From assembly GCA_002368155.1 (NCBI GenBank), contig AP018180.1, positions 7,558,561 through 7,622,560 of the forward strand: a DNA stretch of 64,000 nt, given 5' to 3'. The DNA is from Nostoc carneum NIES-2107 (lineage in GTDB: Bacteria > Cyanobacteriota > Cyanobacteriia > Cyanobacteriales > Nostocaceae). A program made the position numbers and the translations under genes. The first letter of the stretch is position 1. The number at the start of each line of letters is the position of its first letter. This document shows, one piece after another, positions 35,113 through 57,352 of the stretch. The notes below the pieces were generated by a model. The model ran no database searches. It worked only from the letters and a program-made list of their open reading frames with translations, and was not told the origin of the DNA.

Positions 35113-35355
35113 AAAATTATATTGCCACATTTTAGTCTTGTCAGTCCAGTAGGATGCGTTAGCGATCGCGTAACGCATCTCTGGTCTAAATTTTCGTGTG
35201 TTACTGAAATTTTTTCAAAAATCACATCTAATTTCTATATATTATTTATTATTTTTATTAGTCCAGTAGGGTGCGTTAGCAGCGAGAGTACGGCACCTCT
35301 AGCAATGCCTTTCGTGCGTTACTGATGCATTGCAAATTGTTTTTCAATTTATCTA

Positions 35356-44636: not shown

Positions 44637-45479
44637 ATGACAGAGCTAAAACACTTCAGCAATCTTTACATTTTTGGTGATAGTTATTCTGATATTGGTA
44701 ATGCTTTCAATATTACAGGTGGTCTTCTAGCTGCACCGCCCAACTATCATGGACGATTCTCTAATGGTATGCTGTGGATTGACTATCTCGCAGAAACTTT
44801 AAAATTAAGCATACAAGCAAGTACAGAAAATAGCTCAAGCAATCACGGGAGCAATTTTGCCATTGGAGGCGCAACCACAGGGACAGAAAATTTATTTCCG
44901 GCGGTGATTCCAGACTTACCAGATTTACCAGGATTGCAACAACAAATAGATTCATATATCAGCCGCAAGCCACATATTCAGCCGAATGCACTATATATTA
45001 TCTGGGCTGGCGCTGCGGATTATGCGCCATTTGTGAATGGCATTCCCAAATATAGCGATACTATTACTACTATCGCCAATATTTCTACAGCAATACAAAA
45101 TTTAATTGCATCAGGTGCCAGAAATATTTTGTTAGTTAATGTTATTGATATTGGTAAAACACCTCTAGCACCAGAAGTTAATCAGATTACAAATTCCCAT
45201 TTAGTGAGTCAATTAGTAGAAAAACATAACGCATCTTTGCAAGAAATTGCCTATACTTTTGAAGACAAAATTAATTTAATGTTGTTCGATGTCAAGTCTG
45301 TTGTGGATGATGCGATCGCACATCCGCAAAAATTTGGTTTCACAAACACAACTCAAGCTAGCTCCCTGGTAGAATCTAGCAATCCAGATGAGTATGTATT
45401 TTGGGATCAAGTACATTTCACAACCAAGACCAATAAATTAATCGCGGATGCAGCTTTAGCTATCTTATCCAAGCGCTAA
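44637..45479 (+). CDS. SGNH/GDSL-family hydrolase
   Basis: The ATG at 44637 (MTELKHFSNLYIFGDSYSDIGN) puts the nucleophile motif at Ser16 and gives 280 residues; a frame ten codons longer starts at 44607. Block I is FGDSYSDIGN, block III includes NFAIGGATTG and the oxyanion region, and block V is the DQVHFT Asp/His pair near the C-terminus. No signal peptide is seen with either start, so it may be cytoplasmic or secreted by another route. Probably an esterase or lipase of thermolabile-hemolysin-like type; substrate unknown. Its stop overlaps the copied gene end on the other strand. Confidence 0.88.
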   Translation: MTELKHFSNLYIFGDSYSDIGNAFNITGGLLAAPPNYHGRFSNGMLWIDYLAETLKLSIQASTENSSSNHGSNFAIGGATTGTENLFPAVIPDLPDLPGLQQQIDSYISRKPHIQPNALYIIWAGAADYAPFVNGIPKYSDTITTIANISTAIQNLIASGARNILLVNVIDIGKTPLAPEVNQITNSHLVSQLVEKHNASLQEIAYTFEDKINLMLFDVKSVVDDAIAHPQKFGFTNTTQASSLVESSNPDEYVFWDQVHFTTKTNKLIADAALAILSKR

Positions 45480-45697
45480 ATCTCAAATGGTTCAATTTCG
45501 CGATCGCACCATTGCCGCTGATACCATTCAGCCACTAAAGGCCGGACAATAAATTTAGGCTGACCATCGCCTTTGACATCGACAATAAATTTAGGCTGAC
45601 CATCGCCTTTGACATCAATTCGCAGACAAGAGTAAGGTCTGTGTTTGTTGAAACCCTGGCCGCTACGTCCGATGAACAGTTGCGATCGCGATTCCAT
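45476..45697 (-). pseudogene. Truncated copy of the 3' end of the metallophosphoesterase gene at 46539
   Basis: About 60 codons match the C-terminus of the 520-residue enzyme encoded at 46539-48101, ending identically in PLVAEWYQRQWCDREIEPFEI-type sequence. The DNA similarity spans roughly 45480-45690 versus 46540-46720 and stops at a GCGATCGC site. Inside, a 36-bp unit encoding DVKGDGQPKFIV is present twice in tandem. The catalytic part is absent, so this is a gene fragment. The two gene ends lie in direct orientation on either side of the plus-strand gene at 45715. Confidence 0.85.
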
Positions 45698-46538: not shown

Positions 46539-48101
46539 TTAGATTTCAAACGGCTCAATTTCGCGATCGCACCATTGTCGCTGATACCATTCAGCCACTA
46601 AAGGCCGGACAATAAATTTAGGCTGGCCTTCGCCTTTAACATCAATTCGCAAACAAGAATAAGGTCTGTGTTTGTTGGAACCCTGGCCGCTGCGTCCGAT
46701 GAAAAGTTGCGATCGCGCTACTAATTTCTCGCCATCTGCCATGATTTCCCGCACCTCCGGCCCTTCTTCCCGTTGGCGACGCAAACTAAAACCGCTACCA
46801 CCGCAAACAATCCAGGGAATATGGGAATCAGCGTGTCCGGTGTCTGCGGTTTGCAGATATTCTAGACAATGGGCATGACCGTTAATCACTAAATCAACTA
46901 AAGGACGACCCTCAGTTAGGGAACCTAATTTTTCTGCTACTGCATCTAACACCCCACGCAAACGGGTACGCACTGCTAATGTTTGCGCTTGTTGCCATTT
47001 TGTCGCTTCGGTGACGTAGGGGGGATGGTGAAAATAAATTATTCTGCCACGCACTTCTTTATTGTGCCAGGATTCAATTAGCCTTTGCCTTAGCCAGTCT
47101 AGCTGTTCGATATCTGTCACTGTTATTTTGTTACTGTCTAACTGCTTTTCAATATCAACAATAATTTCCTCAATTTGGGTGAGTTTAACTTGTAAATCAT
47201 CTAATTGTTCCGCATCCTTGGGATTGCTGGGACTTAGCAGCGCTGAGGTGGCTGTAATTTGCTGCTTTTCTTGTTCTAAACTAGCGCGACGTTTTTCTAA
47301 AATTCTGCGATCGCTATTGCCTTCTTGAGTATTAGGCAGTGGTGGCGGATCGTTAAATGTATTAGAATCCAGTGCAAAGAAATCTATGCCACCATAGCGA
47401 AACGTATAATAACGATTTGGCAAGCGAGTAAAGCTTCCCGGCTGATAAGAGAGACAGCGACCGCTATCTGTATTTGCGGTGTAATATTTATCTAAATGAT
47501 TAGCTAAATCTACCGGAGATTGGATACCGCAGAGATAATCTAAAAATGCTCTGGCATAAGCTTCACCCGTTCCTGAACCATATAAACCCACATCTAGATC
47601 CAGCCGCGATTTTAACAAGCGCCGAATGGGTAATGTAGTCACCGAAGCTAAACCAAATAAAATTGGCAGATTATAGTAATCATGATTTCCCGGTACAGGT
47701 AAAATCGGCAACCGAAAAACCATTTTGTCATAGGGAATCTTCTTCGGCTGTTCTCTCCCCACCAGAAACTCCCGATAAGGCTGGATAAAGTTTTGTTGAT
47801 AATACTCCCTCGACCCCACCAAATAAATCACATCGCCAGTATGCAACATGAAACGACATTCATCATGGTGGGGTAACATCAATTCCGCTACCCGTCTTTG
47901 GGGGTCGTGTCCCTTGTGCGTCCCAGAACCACTATCACCCACAACCAAAAACGAAAATTCCCCATCATCCGCGTGACCATCATCCAGAACCAAGCGAGTT
48001 TGGTCAATCCCGCGTGCCAAAATTAACGGGTCTTGCCATTTTACCCGTTGCTGCATCTTACTAATTTTTTTTGCGATCGCCGGATCAGAAACTAGTTTCA
48101 A
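46539..48101 (-). CDS. Large metallophosphoesterase (purple-acid-phosphatase-like)
   Basis: The 520-residue protein shows the calcineurin-like metal motifs: FLVVGDSGSG, MLHTGDVIY, PVPGNHDYYN, IIYFHHPPYV and VINGHAHCLEYL. An insertion between residues ~270 and 335 (EKRRASLEQEKQQITAT, DDLQVKLTQIEEIIVDIEKQ) looks like a coiled coil. No signal peptide is seen, unusual for purple acid phosphatases. The end of the gene is duplicated 1 kb further left. Substrate unknown; a phosphodiesterase or phosphatase is inferred. Confidence 0.88.
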   Translation of the reverse strand: MKLVSDPAIAKKISKMQQRVKWQDPLILARGIDQTRLVLDDGHADDGEFSFLVVGDSGSGTHKGHDPQRRVAELMLPHHDECRFMLHTGDVIYLVGSREYYQQNFIQPYREFLVGREQPKKIPYDKMVFRLPILPVPGNHDYYNLPILFGLASVTTLPIRRLLKSRLDLDVGLYGSGTGEAYARAFLDYLCGIQSPVDLANHLDKYYTANTDSGRCLSYQPGSFTRLPNRYYTFRYGGIDFFALDSNTFNDPPPLPNTQEGNSDRRILEKRRASLEQEKQQITATSALLSPSNPKDAEQLDDLQVKLTQIEEIIVDIEKQLDSNKITVTDIEQLDWLRQRLIESWHNKEVRGRIIYFHHPPYVTEATKWQQAQTLAVRTRLRGVLDAVAEKLGSLTEGRPLVDLVINGHAHCLEYLQTADTGHADSHIPWIVCGGSGFSLRRQREEGPEVREIMADGEKLVARSQLFIGRSGQGSNKHRPYSCLRIDVKGEGQPKFIVRPLVAEWYQRQWCDREIEPFEI

Positions 48102-49542: not shown

Positions 49543-51144
49543 ATGAGTGATTATAATCAAACTCGGAAAATCCTGCTTTTATCCGCAAATCCCAGAGATA
49601 CCAATCCATTGCGTTTGGGTGAAGAGATGCGCGAAATTAAGGAAGGATTGAAAAGGTCAAAGAATCGTGACCAATATTTCATAGCTACAGCAGAAGCAGT
49701 ACGTTACAGAGATATACACAGAGCTATTTTAGAATACGAACCGCAGATTATTCACTTTTCTGGGCATGGAACTGGAGAAGAAGGTTTAGTATTTGAAGAT
49801 GAATCTGGTCAAATTAAATTAGTTGATGGGGAAGCTTTAGCTGGGTTATTTCAATTATTTGCTGACCAAGTAGAATGTGTTGTACTCAATGCCTGTTTTT
49901 CTCAATATCAAGCTGGGGAAATAGCAAGACATATTAATTATGTTGTCGGCATGAGTCAGAGAATTGGTGATAAAGCAGCTATTGAATTTGCAGTAGGTTT
50001 TTATGATGCGCTAGGCGCAGATAAAGGTTATGAGTTTGCTTATAAGTTAGGTTGTAGCTTGATTCGTGTAGCTGGAATAGCAGAAAATCTCACACCTAAA
50101 TTAATTACAAAATCAGATACAGCATCATTAAATTCTACAGCAGAGGCAAAGACAATATATGTAGAAAGACCGCCAATTGAGGCGAAATGTTATGAGGCAA
50201 TTTTGCAACCTGGGGCATTAATTCGCATTAGGTCGCCGCAGAGAATGGGCAAAACATTGTTGTTAGAGAAAGTACTTAATCATGGGAGACAGCAAGGTTA
50301 TCGAACAGCGAAATTAGATTTAAAACTGGCTGATAGTGAGATTCTAGCTGACGCAAAAACATTTTTACAATGGTTATGTGTTGATGTTGCCGATAGCCTG
50401 GAACTAGAACCGCAATTAAATAAATACTGGCAAGATGTTTTTGGATTAAATAAAAACTGTACTCGCTATTTCCAAAAATATTTATTAGCTGCTAGTGATA
50501 GCCCTTTAATATTAGCTATCGACAATTTTGAGAGATTATTTGCATATCCAGAGATTTTCCCCTCATTCTGTTTATTACTGCGGGGATGGTATGAAGCAGC
50601 TAAACAAGGCGACAAAATTGGTAATCTCTGGAAGAAGCTGCGATTAGTTGTAGTTCATTCTACGGAATCATATCCTACTTTAGATACTAATCATTCACCA
50701 TTTAATGTGGGATTACCAATTGAGTTAACTGAATTTAATCTCCAACAAGTAGAATTTCTTGCCCAACAGTATGAATTAGCAGATAAGTTAGGTACACAAG
50801 CTTTGAATGAGTTGATGGCGTTAGTAGGAGGACACCCTGATTTAATCCAGCAAGCACTAGCTTACCTGCAAAATCCCCAAGCTACTATCAAAGAACTTTT
50901 GCAGCTTGCGCCAACAGAACAGGGAATTTTTAGCGACCATTTGCGACAGCAATTATGGCATTTACAACATAATTCTCAGCTTGAGTTAGGGTATAAACAA
51001 GTGGTAATGGCGAATGCACCCGTCAGGTTAGATACTGAGGTTGCATTTAAGTTACATAGTTTAGGATTGGTAAAACTTTCAGGTAATGATTGTGTTCCCA
51101 GTTATGAATTATATCGTCAGTATTTCGCAGTGCGTTTAGGATAA
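49543..51144 (+). CDS. CHAT protease-like domain fused to a STAND/AAA_35 ATPase
   Basis: The 533-residue protein has a caspase-like CHAT domain (residues ~8-185) with the catalytic dyad in place: His75 (IIHFSGHGT) and Cys118 (VVLNACFSQ), plus the family's closing FAVGFYDALGADKGYEFAY stretch. Residues ~205-470 form a STAND-type ATPase of the cyanobacterial AAA_35 kind, with a P-loop (SPQRMGKTLL, 231-240), a Walker-B-like LILAIDNFERLF near 320 and GGHPDLIQQAL. A winged-helix-like tail ends the protein. The family logic is ATP-switched activation of a caspase-like protease, used in bacterial cell-death and defence systems. Target unknown. The next gene encodes a second ATPase of the same kind. 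Confidence 0.87.
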   Translation: MSDYNQTRKILLLSANPRDTNPLRLGEEMREIKEGLKRSKNRDQYFIATAEAVRYRDIHRAILEYEPQIIHFSGHGTGEEGLVFEDESGQIKLVDGEALAGLFQLFADQVECVVLNACFSQYQAGEIARHINYVVGMSQRIGDKAAIEFAVGFYDALGADKGYEFAYKLGCSLIRVAGIAENLTPKLITKSDTASLNSTAEAKTIYVERPPIEAKCYEAILQPGALIRIRSPQRMGKTLLLEKVLNHGRQQGYRTAKLDLKLADSEILADAKTFLQWLCVDVADSLELEPQLNKYWQDVFGLNKNCTRYFQKYLLAASDSPLILAIDNFERLFAYPEIFPSFCLLLRGWYEAAKQGDKIGNLWKKLRLVVVHSTESYPTLDTNHSPFNVGLPIELTEFNLQQVEFLAQQYELADKLGTQALNELMALVGGHPDLIQQALAYLQNPQATIKELLQLAPTEQGIFSDHLRQQLWHLQHNSQLELGYKQVVMANAPVRLDTEVAFKLHSLGLVKLSGNDCVPSYELYRQYFAVRLG

Positions 51145-51178
51145 TATCAACTTAAACTCAATGCTTATCCCTGCTCAA

Positions 51179-51321
51179 TTTTGTAGGGTGTGTTACGCCG
51201 CAGGCTAACGCACCATCCGAGATTTTCATAATTTTGTAAAATGTATTGTACCGCACTCTTACTCTTACCATTAGAGATTTTCGGTGCGTTATGACTAAAG
51301 TCCATAACGCACCCTACAAAA
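51179..51321. repeat. MITE-like element with TTTTGTAGGGTG ends
   Basis: TTTTGTAGGGTGTGTTA at the left is inverted as TAACGCACCCTACAAAA at the right, 143 bp in total, with inner GCTAACGCACC and CGGTGCGTTATG pieces. It lies between the two ATPase genes. Related ends occur at 55911 and fragments near 15035 and 59478. Confidence 0.8.
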
Positions 51322-51329
51322 GCTAAATC

Positions 51330-51358
51330 CAATGACAAATGACAAATGACAAATGACC
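51330..51358 (+). repeat. ATGACAA heptamer array carrying the start codon of the next gene
   Basis: ATG codons occur at 51332, 51339, 51346 and 51353, seven bases apart and so in changing frames. The one at 51346 is in frame with the ATPase gene. Confidence 0.8.
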
Positions 51359-53265
51359 AATATATATTCTCTGGAAGTTTACCGGAAAATGCTAGCACCT
51401 ACGTTACACGCCAAGCTGACAGTGATTTGTATGCAGGATTAAAAGCGGGAAAGTTTTGTTATGTTTTGAACTCCCGACAAAGCGGAAAGTCTAGCTTGCG
51501 TGTGCGTACCATGCAAAGACTCAGAGAAGAAGGTGTACAATGTGCAGCAATTGACCTTTCGGCTGGGGGGATTCAAAATGTACCACCGGAACAATGGTAT
51601 GCAGATTTAATTGATAATTTAATTGAAACATTTGACTTAGATGTAGATTTTGGTGATTGGTGGGAAGCTAATCAATTAAATTCCCTGGTGACAAGATTTC
51701 GCAAGTTTTTAGAAGAAATATTACTGGTTGAAGTTAAAGAAAATATCGTTATTTTTATTGATGAAATTGATAGCGTACTCAGTCTGAAATTTCCTACAGA
51801 TGATTTTTTTGCACTAATTCGCGCCTGTTATAACAAGCGGGTTGATAATCCTGAATATAATCGCCTGACCTTTTGTTTGTTGGGAGTCGCATCACCTAGC
51901 AATTTAATTGAGGATAAACAACGCACTCCGTTTAATATTGGTCAAGCTATCTCATTGACTGGTTTTCAATTGCATGAAGTTGAGCCATTAGCTAAGGGGA
52001 TATCAGAGAGATTTTCTCAGCCTCAAGCAGTCATGGAGGAAATTTTATATTGGACAGGAGGACAACCATTTTTGACGCAAAAATTGTGTCAGTTGATGAT
52101 TGAAGAATCTTTGCAAGACAATCCTCGCAATGTTGAGCAGGTAGTAAAATCGCGGATTATTGAAAATTGGGAATCTCAAGATGAGCCTGAGCATTTACGA
52201 ACAATTCAAGCTCGAATTTTGGGCGATGAACAACGCGCTGGATATTTACTAGAACTGTATCAGCAAATTAGATTGAGAGATGAACAATCTGAGATTACAG
52301 CTGATGATACTTTAGAGCAAAGTGAGTTACAGCTTTCAGGATTAGTTTTTAGGCAGCAAAATAATTTAATAGTTTATAATCGCATATATCAAGAAGTTTT
52401 TAATCAAAATTGGATAGATAGTCAATTAAGAAATCTGCGTCCATATTCAGAAAATTTCCGTTTTTGGGTGGCTTCAGAGGGAAAGGATAGCTCACGATTA
52501 TTGCGGGGAAAGGCTTTACAAGAAGCTGAAGCATGGGCAAGGGATAAAAGTTTAAGTTATCAAGATAGGCAGTTTTTAGCAGCTAGTAAAGAGCAAGAAA
52601 TTCAAGAAGAGATTGCTGTTCAAGAACAAGAAGCTGCTTTGGAACGTGAGAGAAAAGATAAAGAAGCAGCAGAGAAAAGAAATTTGATGCTGGCTGAAGC
52701 CAATCAAAAACTAGCTGAAGCTAATCAGAAAGCTCAAAAACGTATTCGCATAGGTTCAGTTGTTTTAGTGCTGACATCATTAGGAGCAGCAATTTCTATA
52801 ATGTGGGCAGGTAAGGATATTCAAGAAATTCGAGAAAATACTAAATATGTTTCTCAATTATCTAACCTGGGCGAAACACTTGATAAGAAAGACCTATCAT
52901 CTTCAGCAAGTCAGGTAAGGGAACAAATAGGTTTCTCTTATGAAATTAAAAATCACGAATTAAAAAAAGCAATGCTATTTACTTCGATGTCTCAAGCATA
53001 CCAGAAACTTAACGAATGGGATAAAGCCGAAAAAGAAATTATAGCAAGTAAAAAGATTTTAGAATCACATAAAAATTTAATTAGTTCTAATAGTAATTAT
53101 CAACAAATTCAAGATATGAATAATAAAACTTATGATAATTTACTAACGCATAAAAAAGAAATAAACCAAGCTATAGAATATTATAAAGATTTTAAAAATG
53201 TTAATAATTACCCAGAGCAAACTAGTCCATTTACAAAAAGTAACCATTATTCATTAACGAAGTAA
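51346..53265 (+). CDS. STAND/AAA_35 ATPase with transmembrane helix and helical C-terminus
   Basis: The 639-residue protein has the AAA_35 ATPase domain first: FSGSLPENASTYVTRQADSDLY, P-loop NSRQSGKSSL (42-51), Walker B IVIFIDEIDSVL near 135-145, and WTGGQPFLTQKLCQLM. A linker and a charged coiled coil (residues ~420-465, rich in E/K/A/Q) lead to one transmembrane helix (IGSVVLVLTSLGAAISIMWAG, ~469-488). The last ~150 residues are helical, TPR-like (AMLFTSMSQAYQKLNEWDKA) and Lys/Asn-rich. Related cyanobacterial proteins often carry WD40 repeats after the membrane helix; none are present here. Start lies in a heptamer array. Probably functions with the CHAT-ATPase upstream. Confidence 0.83.
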   Translation: MTNDQYIFSGSLPENASTYVTRQADSDLYAGLKAGKFCYVLNSRQSGKSSLRVRTMQRLREEGVQCAAIDLSAGGIQNVPPEQWYADLIDNLIETFDLDVDFGDWWEANQLNSLVTRFRKFLEEILLVEVKENIVIFIDEIDSVLSLKFPTDDFFALIRACYNKRVDNPEYNRLTFCLLGVASPSNLIEDKQRTPFNIGQAISLTGFQLHEVEPLAKGISERFSQPQAVMEEILYWTGGQPFLTQKLCQLMIEESLQDNPRNVEQVVKSRIIENWESQDEPEHLRTIQARILGDEQRAGYLLELYQQIRLRDEQSEITADDTLEQSELQLSGLVFRQQNNLIVYNRIYQEVFNQNWIDSQLRNLRPYSENFRFWVASEGKDSSRLLRGKALQEAEAWARDKSLSYQDRQFLAASKEQEIQEEIAVQEQEAALERERKDKEAAEKRNLMLAEANQKLAEANQKAQKRIRIGSVVLVLTSLGAAISIMWAGKDIQEIRENTKYVSQLSNLGETLDKKDLSSSASQVREQIGFSYEIKNHELKKAMLFTSMSQAYQKLNEWDKAEKEIIASKKILESHKNLISSNSNYQQIQDMNNKTYDNLLTHKKEINQAIEYYKDFKNVNNYPEQTSPFTKSNHYSLTK

Positions 53266-53576
53266 TTAAGCAGATACCAGGAAATTTAGCAAATCGGAGT
53301 TCGCCTAAATAAATTTTTCTGCTATCTCATGCACAATAGTAAATTCTGTGAAATATTTAAACAAAAATATTTACAGTCATTACGAGTTAAACAAAGCAAT
53401 CGCAAGGGCTGGGATTGCTACCCTTCGGAAAGGCTTCGCTCAATTCACAGTGACATTGTGTAATTAGTTAAGCCGCATCCACCAATAATACTATTGTCTT
53501 GACTAAGAATGGCATTGTATTGAAAGATATTGCGATCGCACCGATTTACAATTTCACTATGAAGTGAGAATGCGAT
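53266..53576. other. Intergenic region (311 bp) with degenerate repeat
   Basis: A GTCATTACGAG...CAATCGCAAG...TTCGGAAAGGCTTCGCTCAATTC stretch (53377-53450) resembles the inverted repeat at 38758. A HIP1 site precedes the ParE-like gene end. No gene. Confidence 0.5.
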
Positions 53577-54266: not shown

Positions 54267-54557
54267 ATGAAAATAAAAGCAATTATTCATCCAGCAGAAG
54301 AAGGTGGCTATTGGGCTGAAGTTCCAGCACTTCCCGGTTGTATTACTGAAGGTGAGACAATGGAGGAGGTATTAAGTAATTTAAAAGATGCAATAGAAAG
54401 CTGGTTAGAAGTCGCAAATAGTAGTCATCACATTTACCAAAGTTCTGATTTCAATAAAATACTTTCTATTCCAGTTCATCGAAATCAAGACTTGAAAATT
54501 GGGACTTTAAGAGCATTAATGAAAATCGCTGATCTAACAGAAGAGGATTTGACGTAA
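54267..54557 (+). CDS. HicB antitoxin N-terminus fused in frame to a HicA toxin C-terminus
   Basis: Residues 1-49 are a HicB partial-RNase-H domain (IIHPAEEGGYWAEVPALPGC, ITEGETMEEVLSNLKDAIESWLEV). From residue ~50 the sequence changes to HicA: SSHHIYQ corresponds to HicA's GSHHIY with the catalytic His, and IPVHRNQDLKIGTLRALMKIA to HicA's IPVHxNxDLKxGTLRAIL. The C-terminal DNA-binding part of HicB and the first helix of HicA are missing. There is no separate hicA nearby. The simplest explanation is an in-frame deletion joining hicB to hicA; toxicity is probably lost or altered. Confidence 0.78.
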   Translation: MKIKAIIHPAEEGGYWAEVPALPGCITEGETMEEVLSNLKDAIESWLEVANSSHHIYQSSDFNKILSIPVHRNQDLKIGTLRALMKIADLTEEDLT

Positions 54558-55910: not shown

Positions 55911-56060
55911 TGTAGGGTGTGTTAGGCGCTTGTTTTCAATATGATTTGTCGCGCAAGAAATATCCTAGCGCCTAACGCACCATTCACGCGGCGGTGCGTT
56001 ACGGCTCAATATCATTGTCTCTGTGTTCAATATCCTTTCATAGCCGTAACACACCCTACT
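55911..56060. repeat. MITE-like element with TGTAGGGTGTGTTA ends
   Basis: TGTAGGGTGTGTTA at the left and TAACACACCCTAC at the right are inverted, with inner GCGCTTG/GCGCCTAACGC and GGTGCGTTACGGC/GCCGTAAC hairpins. Its right part is duplicated at 56125-56249. Confidence 0.75.
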
Positions 56061-56249
56061 TAAGATTGACTTGTACAAATTTTCACTTCATCGTTAATCC
56101 TTAGAGGTTATTTATAAAGTCAAAGCCTAACGTACTATCAATGCGGCGGTGCGTTACGGCTCAATATCATTGTCTCTGTGTTCGATATCCTTTCATAGCC
56201 GTAACACACCCTACTAAGATTGACTTGTACACATTTTCACTTCATCGTT
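55970..56249 (+). repeat. Direct duplication (~125 bp x 2) upstream of hemC
   Basis: 55970-56095 and 56125-56249 match along their length, and over ~107 bases (55988-56095 versus 56143-56249) differ at only a few positions. Each copy carries the GGTGCGTTACGGC-GCCGTAACACACCCTACT hairpin plus AAGATTGACTTGTACA and TTCACTTCATCGTT. The second ends about 130 bp before the hemC start. Confidence 0.9.
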
Positions 56250-56380
56250 TATTTGGTAAATAAATGTAAAGAAATTCGCAATTAAACTTAACCGAAATTA
56301 AGCAATTAGCATCCGGTAAGTCACTCACTGCGGTAGTCTAGATGAGAGTGAATTTATCGCCTTGTTTGACATTTTGTTTT

Positions 56381-57352
56381 ATGACTTCAGCTGTTTCCAG
56401 TCCTACACGCACAATTCGTATTGGTTCTCGTAAGAGTCAACTTGCTCTGGTTCAAACCCACTGGGTAAAAGAGCAACTCCAAAAAAGCTATCCTGAGATT
56501 GCTTTTGAAGTTCATACCATGTCTACCCAAGGCGACAAAATCCTGGATGTAGCATTAGCCAAGATTGGTGATAAAGGATTATTCACCAAAGAATTAGAAG
56601 TGGGAATGCTCAACAAGGAAATTGACTTTGCGGTTCATTCCCTGAAGGATTTGCCTACTAATTTACCAGAAGGGTTAACATTAGCAGCAATTACCGAACG
56701 GGAAAACCCAGCAGATGCTTTGGTGTTGCACGAAAAGTATAAAGGTCAGACAATTGATACCTTACCAGAGGGTGCTGTCATCGGTACATCTTCTCTGCGG
56801 CGCTTGGCACAGTTACGCAATCAGTTCCCCCATTTTACATTTAAGGATGTACGGGGAAATTTGAATACACGCATGGCTAAATTAGATGCGGGTGAGTATG
56901 ATGCGTTGATTTTGGCAGTAGCAGGTTTAGAGCGATTGGGAATGAGCGATCGCATTCACCAAATTCTACCAAAAGAAATTTCGCTTCATGCTGTTGGGCA
57001 AGGTGCATTGGGTATTGAATGCCGTGCTGATGATACTGAGTTGATATCTTTACTAAAAGCTATCGAACATCCCCAAACACGCGATCGCTGTTTAGCTGAA
57101 CGCGCTTTCTTACGCGATTTGGAAGGTGGTTGCCAAGTTCCCATCGGTGTTAACACTGAAATTAATGGTGACCAATTAACATTAACCGGAATTGTTGCCA
57201 GCGTAGATGGGCAAAAGCTGGTGAAAGATACCGTCTCCGGCGAAGCCAAAAATGCCGAACAGTTAGGTACAGAACTAGCAAATCTGTTGCGTCAACAAGG
57301 GGCACAAGAAATTTTGGATGTGATCTTTACTGAAATCCAAAGAGGTTCTTAA
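56381..57352 (+). CDS. hemC: Porphobilinogen deaminase (hydroxymethylbilane synthase)
   Basis: This enzyme joins four porphobilinogens into hydroxymethylbilane for heme and chlorophyll. The ATG at 56381 ([19 protein letters not shown]) gives 323 residues; a frame 13 codons longer looks unnatural. Visible sites are [48 protein letters not shown] and the dipyrromethane cofactor Cys251 in [10 protein letters not shown]. 323 residues is normal for the family. Confidence 0.96.

What the first reader, a model, noticed from the sequence alone, without database searches (positions are those of the whole stretch)
49543..53265. Two-gene CHAT-STAND / STAND-membrane module
A CHAT protease with intact His75/Cys118 fused to a STAND-type ATPase is followed on the same strand by a second ATPase of the same family that carries a coiled coil, a membrane helix and a TPR-like tail instead of the usual WD40 repeats. 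Seen: motifs and order. Known: CHAT and STAND proteins act in bacterial cell-death and anti-phage systems. Inferred: one protein senses and the other executes at the membrane. It adjoins a toxin-antitoxin cluster.
Basis: partly seen in the sequence, partly recalled or inferred. Interest (0 to 1): 0.65.

Follow-up and report, generated by a model that had tools for sequence, protein, structure and literature searches.

The report
Paired STAND switch with swappable sensors
Two neighbouring cyanobacterial genes make a matched pair of molecular switches, one carrying a protease and the other a membrane-anchored sensor; the pair is widespread and both ends are swapped between species, but the copy found here has lost its sensor domain.

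Summary
The pair is real and belongs to a widespread cyanobacterial two-gene system that my searches did not find described. Gene A (49543-51144) is CHAT plus a STAND-type ATPase (AAA_35). Gene B (51346-53265) is a second, distant AAA_35 ATPase with a coiled coil and one membrane helix. In 15 related genomes, 47 of 80 B-type ATPases have an A-type within 2 kb on the same strand (A first in 44); about 0.5 is expected by chance. A and B ATPase domains diverge in step (Mantel r 0.90, 120 pairs). The outer ends are exchanged: A carries CHAT, TIR, kinase, trypsin or EAD1; B carries GUN4, WD40, periplasmic-binding, CHASE2, peptidoglycan-binding, GAF or histidine-kinase domains. The CHAT His/Cys dyad is intact in 90 of 90. 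Correction: the focal B is shortened; relatives 85-88% identical over its length continue into a GUN4 region, missing here. A crude test found no defence-island enrichment, and the locus is a fixed chromosomal site. Most likely B is a transmembrane receptor-ATPase that licenses the soluble A effector, a split NLR-like switch. Whether it serves immunity or stress response is untested.

The parts
49543..51144 (+). Gene A (P1, 533 aa): CHAT effector + A-type AAA_35 STAND ATPase, no predicted membrane helix
   Evidence: A proteins without a predicted TM 96 of 99
49576..50019 (+). CHAT domain (residues 12-159); His75 codon 49765-49767, Cys118 codon 49894-49896
   Evidence: Pfam PF12770 36 bits; PADLOC chat 64 bits; model aligns to SAVED-CHAT 8tl0 Z 21.4; dyad 90 of 90
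50143..51129 (+). A-type AAA_35 ATPase (residues 201-529): P-loop MGKT (235-238), Walker B AIDNFE (325-330, Asn where B has Glu), GHP at 430-432
   Evidence: PF14516 418 bits; residues counted; fold matches archaeal ATPases 2qen/2fna, CED-4 and plant NLRs
51183..51317 (.). Intergenic stretch bounded by inverted copies of the dispersed GTAGGGTGYGTTA motif; it separates genes that nearly abut in many relatives
   Evidence: motif 9 times in the window with up to 1 mismatch, 0.05 expected; gaps in relatives
51346..53265 (+). Gene B (P2, 639 aa): B-type AAA_35 STAND ATPase + coiled coil + membrane helix + shortened helical tail
51370..52404 (+). B-type AAA_35 ATPase (residues 9-353): SGKS (46-49), Walker B FIDEID (137-142), GQP at 239-241
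   Evidence: PF14516 113 bits; Glu140 in 138 of 138 B domains; fold of the L182 relative
52558..52740 (+). Charged coiled-coil-like region before the membrane helix (approximate)
   Evidence: sequence; long helix 405-470 in the model of the full-length relative L182 B
52750..52806 (+). Predicted single membrane helix, residues 469-487
   Evidence: Kyte-Doolittle 2.01; positive charge on the N-side suggests N-terminus inside
52807..53262 (+). Tail; fast-diverging between strains; the GUN4 region of relatives is missing after it
53246..53298 (.). Junction: DNA similarity to the B genes of G003, G088, G141 and G052 stops at 53246; a 51-52 bp match to DNA about 105-110 bp past the B stop codon of G052, G122 and G133 begins at 53298-53299. 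Simplest reading: deletion of the GUN4-coding part in this lineage

Best explanation
The two genes encode a split, NLR-like switch made of two different STAND ATPases. B is a type II membrane protein: its ATPase is in the cytosol, its coiled coil leads into one membrane helix, and its exchangeable C-terminal domain is the sensor, in most cases on the far (periplasmic or lumenal) side. A is soluble: its ATPase carries an exchangeable N-terminal effector, here a CHAT cysteine protease. Ligand binding or damage at B's sensor would change B's nucleotide state, B would co-assemble with A through the two ATPase domains, and clustering would switch the CHAT protease on. In the focal clade A has Asn where the hydrolysis Glu is expected while B keeps Glu, so B would be the ATPase timer and A mainly an ATP-bound follower. 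In the focal genome the GUN4 end is missing, so this copy is either a sensor-less variant or one beginning to decay. Shown by computation: domains, pairing, co-divergence, exchange of ends, residue patterns, predicted topology, loss of the GUN4 part. Inferred: physical contact of A and B, direction of signalling, ligand, substrate, outcome.
For: Pairing: PF14516 census of 15 genomes, 47 of 80 B with an A within 2 kb on the same strand, 66 of 80 within 15 kb (either strand), about 0.5 expected within 2 kb. Of 155 distinct A proteins in loci chosen by similarity to P1, 125 have B downstream within 2 kb, 67 of them within 100 bp, many at 3-7 bp or overlapping. None of the 127 genomes with a P2-like match lacks a P1-like match; all 9 without the latter lack the former (145 genomes, E <= 1e-40; Fisher 8e-10, not corrected for phylogeny or genome size). 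Co-divergence: Mantel r 0.895 over 120 pairs, largest of 2000 permutations 0.133. Exchange of ends: 113 thinned A N-termini: CHAT 60, TIR_2 30, Pkinase 11, Trypsin_2 5, EAD1 2; 140 B tails in two batches: GUN4 49 and WD40 14 of 92, WD40 31 of 48. Topology: one TM in 57 of 57 GUN4 B and 45 of 47 WD40 B (not deduplicated); Lys/Arg more frequent on the N-side in 62 of 80, less in 1; tails individually assigned as GAF (3 of 3) or histidine kinase (2 of 2) have no TM, while periplasmic-binding (3 of 3) and peptidoglycan-binding (1 of 1) tails have one, and the CHASE2 one (L192) has one at the usual place plus three later. Fold: A and B ATPases match CED-4 and plant NLRs, and Avs proteins (A: Avs5; B: Avs3, Avs4, Avs5). 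Walker B: Asn in 40 of 46 A partnered with a GUN4 B, Glu140 in 138 of 138 B. Purifying selection on CHAT and both ATPases, omega 0.06-0.16.
Against: No interaction was tested; no complex was modelled. 33 of 80 B have no A within 2 kb on the same strand and 14 are more than 15 kb away; 25 of 91 A have no B within 15 kb, so the pair is not obligatory in cis. Mantel correlation is also expected if two genes are merely inherited side by side. In one search six loci have B upstream of A (three within 2 kb) and four on the opposite strand. A CHAT domain sits at the end of 3 of 37 B tails, in L190 behind a predicted membrane helix, which does not fit 'sensor outside, effector on A'. A GUN4 domain outside the cytosol is odd, since known GUN4 acts inside (recalled); topology is a hydropathy and charge prediction only. 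The GUN4 region of B matches only part of the Pfam model (for example 4-103 of 141), so tetrapyrrole binding is not shown. The focal copy lacks this domain, so the mechanism may not run in this strain.
Confidence: 0.5

Rival explanations
1. It is an anti-phage (abortive infection) system: B senses infection, CHAT kills or shuts down the cell, as in Avs and other STAND defence proteins.
For: Effectors (CHAT, TIR, trypsin, kinase) and EAD1 are typical of bacterial conflict systems (passages); Avs3/4/5 are among the matches of the B model and Avs5 of the A model; B tails diverge fast while the ATPase is conserved, e.g. G003 vs G122 0.97 and 0.30 identity, as expected of a sensor under conflict.
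Against: No excess of PADLOC families in 140 flanking genes (77 families) against 133 control genes (89 families) (crude); the focal locus is at a fixed chromosomal site in 7 genomes; no PADLOC hit for P2; many sensors look environmental or metabolic (GUN4, periplasmic-binding, CHASE2, GAF).
Confidence: 0.25
2. It is a housekeeping stress or photosynthesis-status switch: GUN4-type B senses tetrapyrroles or photodamage and CHAT does regulated proteolysis, without cell death.
For: GUN4 partners 36 of 71 CHAT-type A whose B is 600 aa or longer and 40 of 53 pairs in the ATPase clade around the focal A; it matches tetrapyrrole-binding proteins. PMC7159879 (passage) proposes GUN4 as a sensor of photosynthesis status in other proteins. 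The focal locus is kept at one site and lies about 3 kb from hemC.
Against: The same chassis carries TIR, WD40 and other unrelated ends; predicted topology puts GUN4 outside the cytosol; hemC is met only at this one syntenic locus; the focal copy lacks GUN4.
Confidence: 0.2
3. A and B are just tandem paralogues kept side by side by descent; they do not work together.
For: Both belong to PF14516; co-divergence alone cannot tell co-inheritance from co-function; a third of B-type ATPases are not next to an A.
Against: A and B ATPases are only 23-27% identical (BLAST rows) yet stay paired across many genera while both outer ends are replaced; 3-7 bp gaps and overlaps are common; none of 127 genomes with P2-like matches lacks a P1-like match; the two types carry mostly different classes of end domain.
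Confidence: 0.1
4. The focal pair is a decaying remnant: B lost its sensor and the pair has no current function here.
For: The GUN4 part is missing; several relatives also have broken A or short B genes (stops inside A matches in G015, G038, G052, G047 and G076; B of 488-532 aa in L075, L081, L083).
Against: Both focal ORFs are otherwise open; CHAT and the ATPase regions show omega about 0.06-0.16 against relatives, though pairwise omega cannot separate recent relaxation in the focal branch, and the tail has 0.53-0.70.
Confidence: 0.35

Closest known systems
Antiviral STAND proteins (Avs3, Avs4, Avs5) and eukaryotic NLRs, CED-4, Apaf-1
   Same: STAND fold; N-terminal effector and C-terminal sensor logic
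   Different: Here effector and sensor sit on two separate, distinct STAND ATPases, and one is predicted to span the membrane; no phage link shown
Plant sensor/executor paired NLRs
   Same: Two adjacent NLR-like genes, one with an added sensor and one with the effector role (analogy; recalled, NLR reviews seen only in a search listing)
   Different: Bacterial, membrane-anchored sensor, different ATPase family
NTP-dependent conflict systems of Kaur et al. 2020 (PMC7159879), including the membrane-associated two-gene EACC1-caspase system
   Same: Exchangeable effector and sensor domains shared with these systems: EAD1, GUN4, trypsin, TIR, caspase-superfamily proteases, periplasmic-binding domains behind a TM helix
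   Different: Core is a MoxR-vWA pair or EACC1 plus caspase, not two AAA_35 ATPases; the word CHAT has 0 occurrences in its held main text (passages; section 33)
SAVED-CHAT effector (8tl0)
   Same: CHAT fold, Z 21.4 over 185 residues, rmsd 2.7
   Different: Fused to SAVED and activated by a nucleotide second messenger (recalled), not by a STAND ATPase
GUN4
   Same: C-terminal part of a full-length relative matches GUN4 structures, best 7e2r E 7e-16
   Different: Fused behind a membrane helix to a STAND ATPase; missing in the focal protein

Membership tests
STAND NTPases | P-loop GK[TS] | tested here: met
   A: G236 151 of 151, K237 150 of 151; B: G47 and K48 136 of 138, gaps in 2
STAND NTPases | Walker B with acidic pair (motif recalled) | tested here: inconclusive
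   B: D139 134 of 138 and E140 138 of 138; focal A has D-N (A column 328: E 74, N 65, D 9 of 151)
STAND NTPases | GxP motif (motif recalled) | tested here: met
   A G430 and P432 151 of 151; B G239 and P241 138 of 138
STAND NTPases | Nucleotide-binding, helical and winged-helix fold shared with CED-4/NLR | tested here: met
   Model of P1 (pLDDT 87) vs CED-4 4m9s Z 16.6, 284 aligned, rmsd 4.3; plant NLRs e.g. 9qlv Z 17.4; archaeal 2qen Z 21.0; L182 B model vs 2fna Z 19.0, CED-4 16.1
CHAT proteases | His-Cys dyad | tested here: met
   90 of 90
CHAT proteases | Proteolytic activity | not testable with these tools
   needs assay
GUN4 family | GUN4 domain present in the focal protein | tested here: not met
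   absent from P2 (member 1: 0 families); present in relatives
Anti-phage defence (Avs-like) | Location in defence islands | tested here: inconclusive
   no enrichment over control but a crude count of families; focal site fixed in 7 genomes; leans against
Anti-phage defence (Avs-like) | Recognition of phage proteins and protection | not testable with these tools
   needs infection assays
Kaur 2020 two-gene EACC1 system | EACC1 TM gene followed by a caspase-superfamily gene with variable C-terminus | tested here: not met
   order and domains differ: CHAT-AAA_35 gene first, AAA_35-TM gene second

The most novel reading that the evidence does not exclude
A previously undescribed, widespread class of transmembrane paired NLR-like receptors in cyanobacteria: a fixed chassis of two different STAND ATPases, one membrane-spanning with interchangeable extracytoplasmic sensors (GUN4, WD40, periplasmic-binding, CHASE2, peptidoglycan-binding) and one soluble with interchangeable effectors (CHAT, TIR, trypsin, kinase), passing an outside signal to a cytosolic death or signalling enzyme.
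Probability: 0.4. Interest if true: 0.8.

Novelty: new variant of a known kind. Interest (0 to 1): 0.6.

Why it matters
If right, bacteria have a counterpart of paired sensor/executor NLRs in which sensing and execution are split between two co-diverging ATPases, with the sensor end across the membrane. The natural swaps make the logic testable: the same chassis with GUN4, WD40 or binding-protein sensors and CHAT, TIR or kinase effectors. It would also give a defined input to some of the many CHAT proteins of such cyanobacteria (44 CHAT hits in this genome alone).

Tried and rejected
Defence-island reading: tested with PADLOC on 140 flanking genes (up to two per side, drawn at random from pairs in L069-L168 until the cap) and on 133 of 164 ORFs from 20 random regions; no excess (77 and 89 families at E <= 1e-10), best-represented hits among flanks being Cas12f models with at most 4 members (probably TnpB transposon genes, recalled). 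The output gives families, not numbers of matched genes, and only the first 25, so the test is crude.

Toxin-antitoxin link: ParE has protein hits in 2 of 7 syntenic loci (a DNA match in a third, L071) and the PIN gene in 4 of 7; stretches and contigs end near there, so absence is not firm.

tblastn for GUN4 remnants downstream of P2 with three relatives' C-termini: no significant hit beyond the aligned tail (other hits E >= 0.14).

hemC link: hemC lies about 3 kb downstream, but among the loci fetched for the pairs it is hit only at this same syntenic place, so I draw nothing from it.

Rows dropped: of 207 PF14516 rows were left out of the census (33 under 70 bits; 3 stronger but fragmentary: G033 825633, G111 1444711, G111 5171903). 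Mantel used 120 of 128 pairs (short domains dropped). Loci were picked by similarity to P1 and overlap in part; counts remove identical sequences (46 also near-identical), counts do not. The domain HMMs (used) were made from my own seeds, so those labels are approximate; L252, for example, was labelled neither but matches WD40 weakly. A and B classes rest on score against P1/P2-derived models or on PF14516 bits.

VIA-align rows cover mainly the ATPases; the tail was not searched alone.

Papers: PMC7159879 passages and section 33; PMC8195603, PMC10907252, PMC7517822 and PMC10156173 passages only; all others seen only in search listings. That the AAA_35 pair is undescribed rests on searches of an open-access library; subscription papers are not covered.
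Full report
What is there. P1 (49543-51144) has a CHAT domain and an AAA_35 ATPase; P2 (51346-53265) has a second AAA_35 ATPase, a coiled-coil-like stretch, one predicted membrane helix and a tail. The window lies in a 9.36 Mb genome with 44 CHAT hits. AAA_35 hits there fall into two score classes: 7 strong ('A', 394-518 bits) and 5 weak ('B', 102-123 bits), plus one hit under the cut-off; each B lies within 8.5 kb of an A on the same strand, three of them within 1 kb.

Is the pair more than chance. In 15 genomes searched with PF14516, 91 A and 80 B remain after dropping 36 weak or fragmentary rows of 207. 47 of 80 B have an A within 2 kb on the same strand (4 more on the opposite strand), 66 of 80 within 15 kb; uniform placement predicts about 0.5 within 2 kb. 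A comes first in 44 of 47. Against: 14 B and 25 A have no partner within 15 kb. In loci chosen by similarity to P1, 125 of 155 distinct A genes have B downstream within 2 kb, 67 within 100 bp, many at 3-7 bp; 18 have no B in the stretch (7 of these near its edge), 6 have B upstream (3 within 2 kb), 4 on the other strand, 2 downstream but farther. In 145 family genomes a P1-like match is found in 136 and a P2-like one in 127 at E <= 1e-40; all 9 without the first also lack the second (not corrected for phylogeny or genome size, and paralogues count). Across a phylum sample, the B ATPase finds a match in 72 of 244 genomes, each with a best E of 4e-80 or lower.

Co-divergence and exchange. Pairwise distances of A and B ATPase domains correlate at r = 0.895 over 120 pairs. 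The outer ends do not stay fixed. Of 113 thinned A N-termini, 60 match CHAT, 30 TIR_2, 11 Pkinase, 5 Trypsin_2, 2 EAD1, 1 caspase C14, 1 cyclase (some match more than one). B tails: GUN4 49 of 92 and WD40 14 of 92 in one batch, WD40 31 of 48 in the other (only the first 25 families of each batch are shown). Of 37 tails my models labelled neither, 7 match GAF, 7 TPR_2, 6 Peripla_BP_6, 3 CHASE2, 3 histidine kinase, 3 CHAT. Around the focal A, ATPase domains 72-79% identical to the focal one (e.g. L129-L132, L137, L138) carry short N-termini that are not CHAT yet keep B downstream.

Topology. B has exactly one predicted membrane helix in 77 of 89 cases, about 100 residues after the ATPase; Lys/Arg is more frequent on the N-side in 62 of 80 and less in 1; A has none in 96 of 99. 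GUN4-type B 57 of 57 and WD40-type 45 of 47 have one helix. Tails with GAF (L227, L230, L233) or histidine kinase (L132 at 7037, L161) have none; periplasmic-binding (L121, L211, L216) and peptidoglycan-binding (L157) tails have one; CHASE2 (L192) has one at the usual place and three later. This is what one expects if the helix puts the sensor outside. Against it, L190 has a CHAT domain behind the helix. The method is hydropathy only.

Structure. The P1 model (pLDDT 87) aligns its CHAT to 8tl0 (Z 21.4, 185 residues, rmsd 2.7) and its ATPase to 2qen (Z 21.0), CED-4 (16.6) and plant NLRs (about 16-17). The full-length B of L182 (pLDDT 74; membrane helix and C-terminal end weak) has Avs3, Avs4, Avs5 and a TPR-STAND protein among its 7 Foldseek hits at E <= 0.001, and 2fna, NLRs and CED-4 by VIA-align.

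Residues. CHAT His75 and Cys118: 90 of 90. A-type Walker B has D327 in 145 of 151, followed by Glu 74, Asn 65, Asp 9; B has Glu140 in 138 of 138. Asn goes with GUN4 partners: 40 of 46 GUN4-paired A, against 7 of 37 WD40-paired A and 15 of 45 others. Thus in the focal clade A may bind ATP but hydrolyse it poorly while B is competent; this is inference.

The focal copy. Relatives with the same tail (G003, G141, G052) go on for about 210 aa; Pfam names GUN4 there in G003, and the L182 tail matches GUN4 structures (7e2r E 7e-16). In the focal genome DNA similarity to them stops at 53246, and a 51-52 bp match to the 3' flank of G052, G122 and G133 begins at 53298-53299: most simply a deletion. B tails diverge quickly: G003 vs G122 are 97% identical in the ATPase, 30% just after the membrane helix and 61% in the GUN4 end. 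CHAT and both ATPases are under purifying selection (omega 0.06-0.16), the focal tail less so (0.53-0.70).

Context. In 7 related genomes the pair sits beside the same YegS-type lipid kinase and metallophosphatase genes (in G052 the A gene is broken); LprI and hemC follow where the fetched stretch or contig reaches them. Flanking genes of pairs show no excess of defence families by a crude count. So a defence island is not shown.

Mechanism. Best reading: B senses across the membrane, changes nucleotide state, co-assembles with A, and A's clustered CHAT becomes active. Pairing, swaps, folds and residues are computed; contact, direction, ligand, substrate and outcome are inferred. Anti-phage death and stress-linked proteolysis both remain open.

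Literature. Searches for AAA_35/PF14516, CHAT with STAND, GUN4 with STAND or CHAT, and paired NLR-like bacterial systems listed no account of this pair. PMC7159879 describes related but differently built systems.

Noticed in passing
54267-54557 (+): A 96-aa ORF matches a HicB-like antitoxin N-terminus and the C-terminal two thirds of HicA in one frame, possibly a fusion left by a deletion between hicB and hicA.
   Followed up: no
51183-51317, also 55912-56214, 35149-35278, 49356, 15054: Dispersed motif GTAGGGTGYGTTA, 9 copies in the window (up to 1 mismatch) against 0.05 expected; inverted copies bound the stretch between genes A and B. Looks like a small mobile repeat.
   Followed up: partly
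51328-51361: TGACAAA heptamer repeats run directly into the start codon of gene B and seem to vary in number in relatives.
   Followed up: no
45476-45697 (-): ORF that repeats the C-terminal end of the metallophosphatase-like gene 46539-48101, with an internal short tandem duplication.
   Followed up: no
56342-57352 (+): hemC (porphobilinogen deaminase), a tetrapyrrole-synthesis gene, lies about 3 kb from a pair whose full-length relatives carry the tetrapyrrole-binding GUN4 domain; seen only at this syntenic locus.
   Followed up: partly
L084 928-5991; L184: B protein of 1687 aa with two AAA_35 stretches in one frame: a tandem fusion of B-type ATPases.
   Followed up: no
L190 6492-10001: B-type protein whose own tail ends in a CHAT domain, so effector domains can also sit on B.
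   Followed up: no
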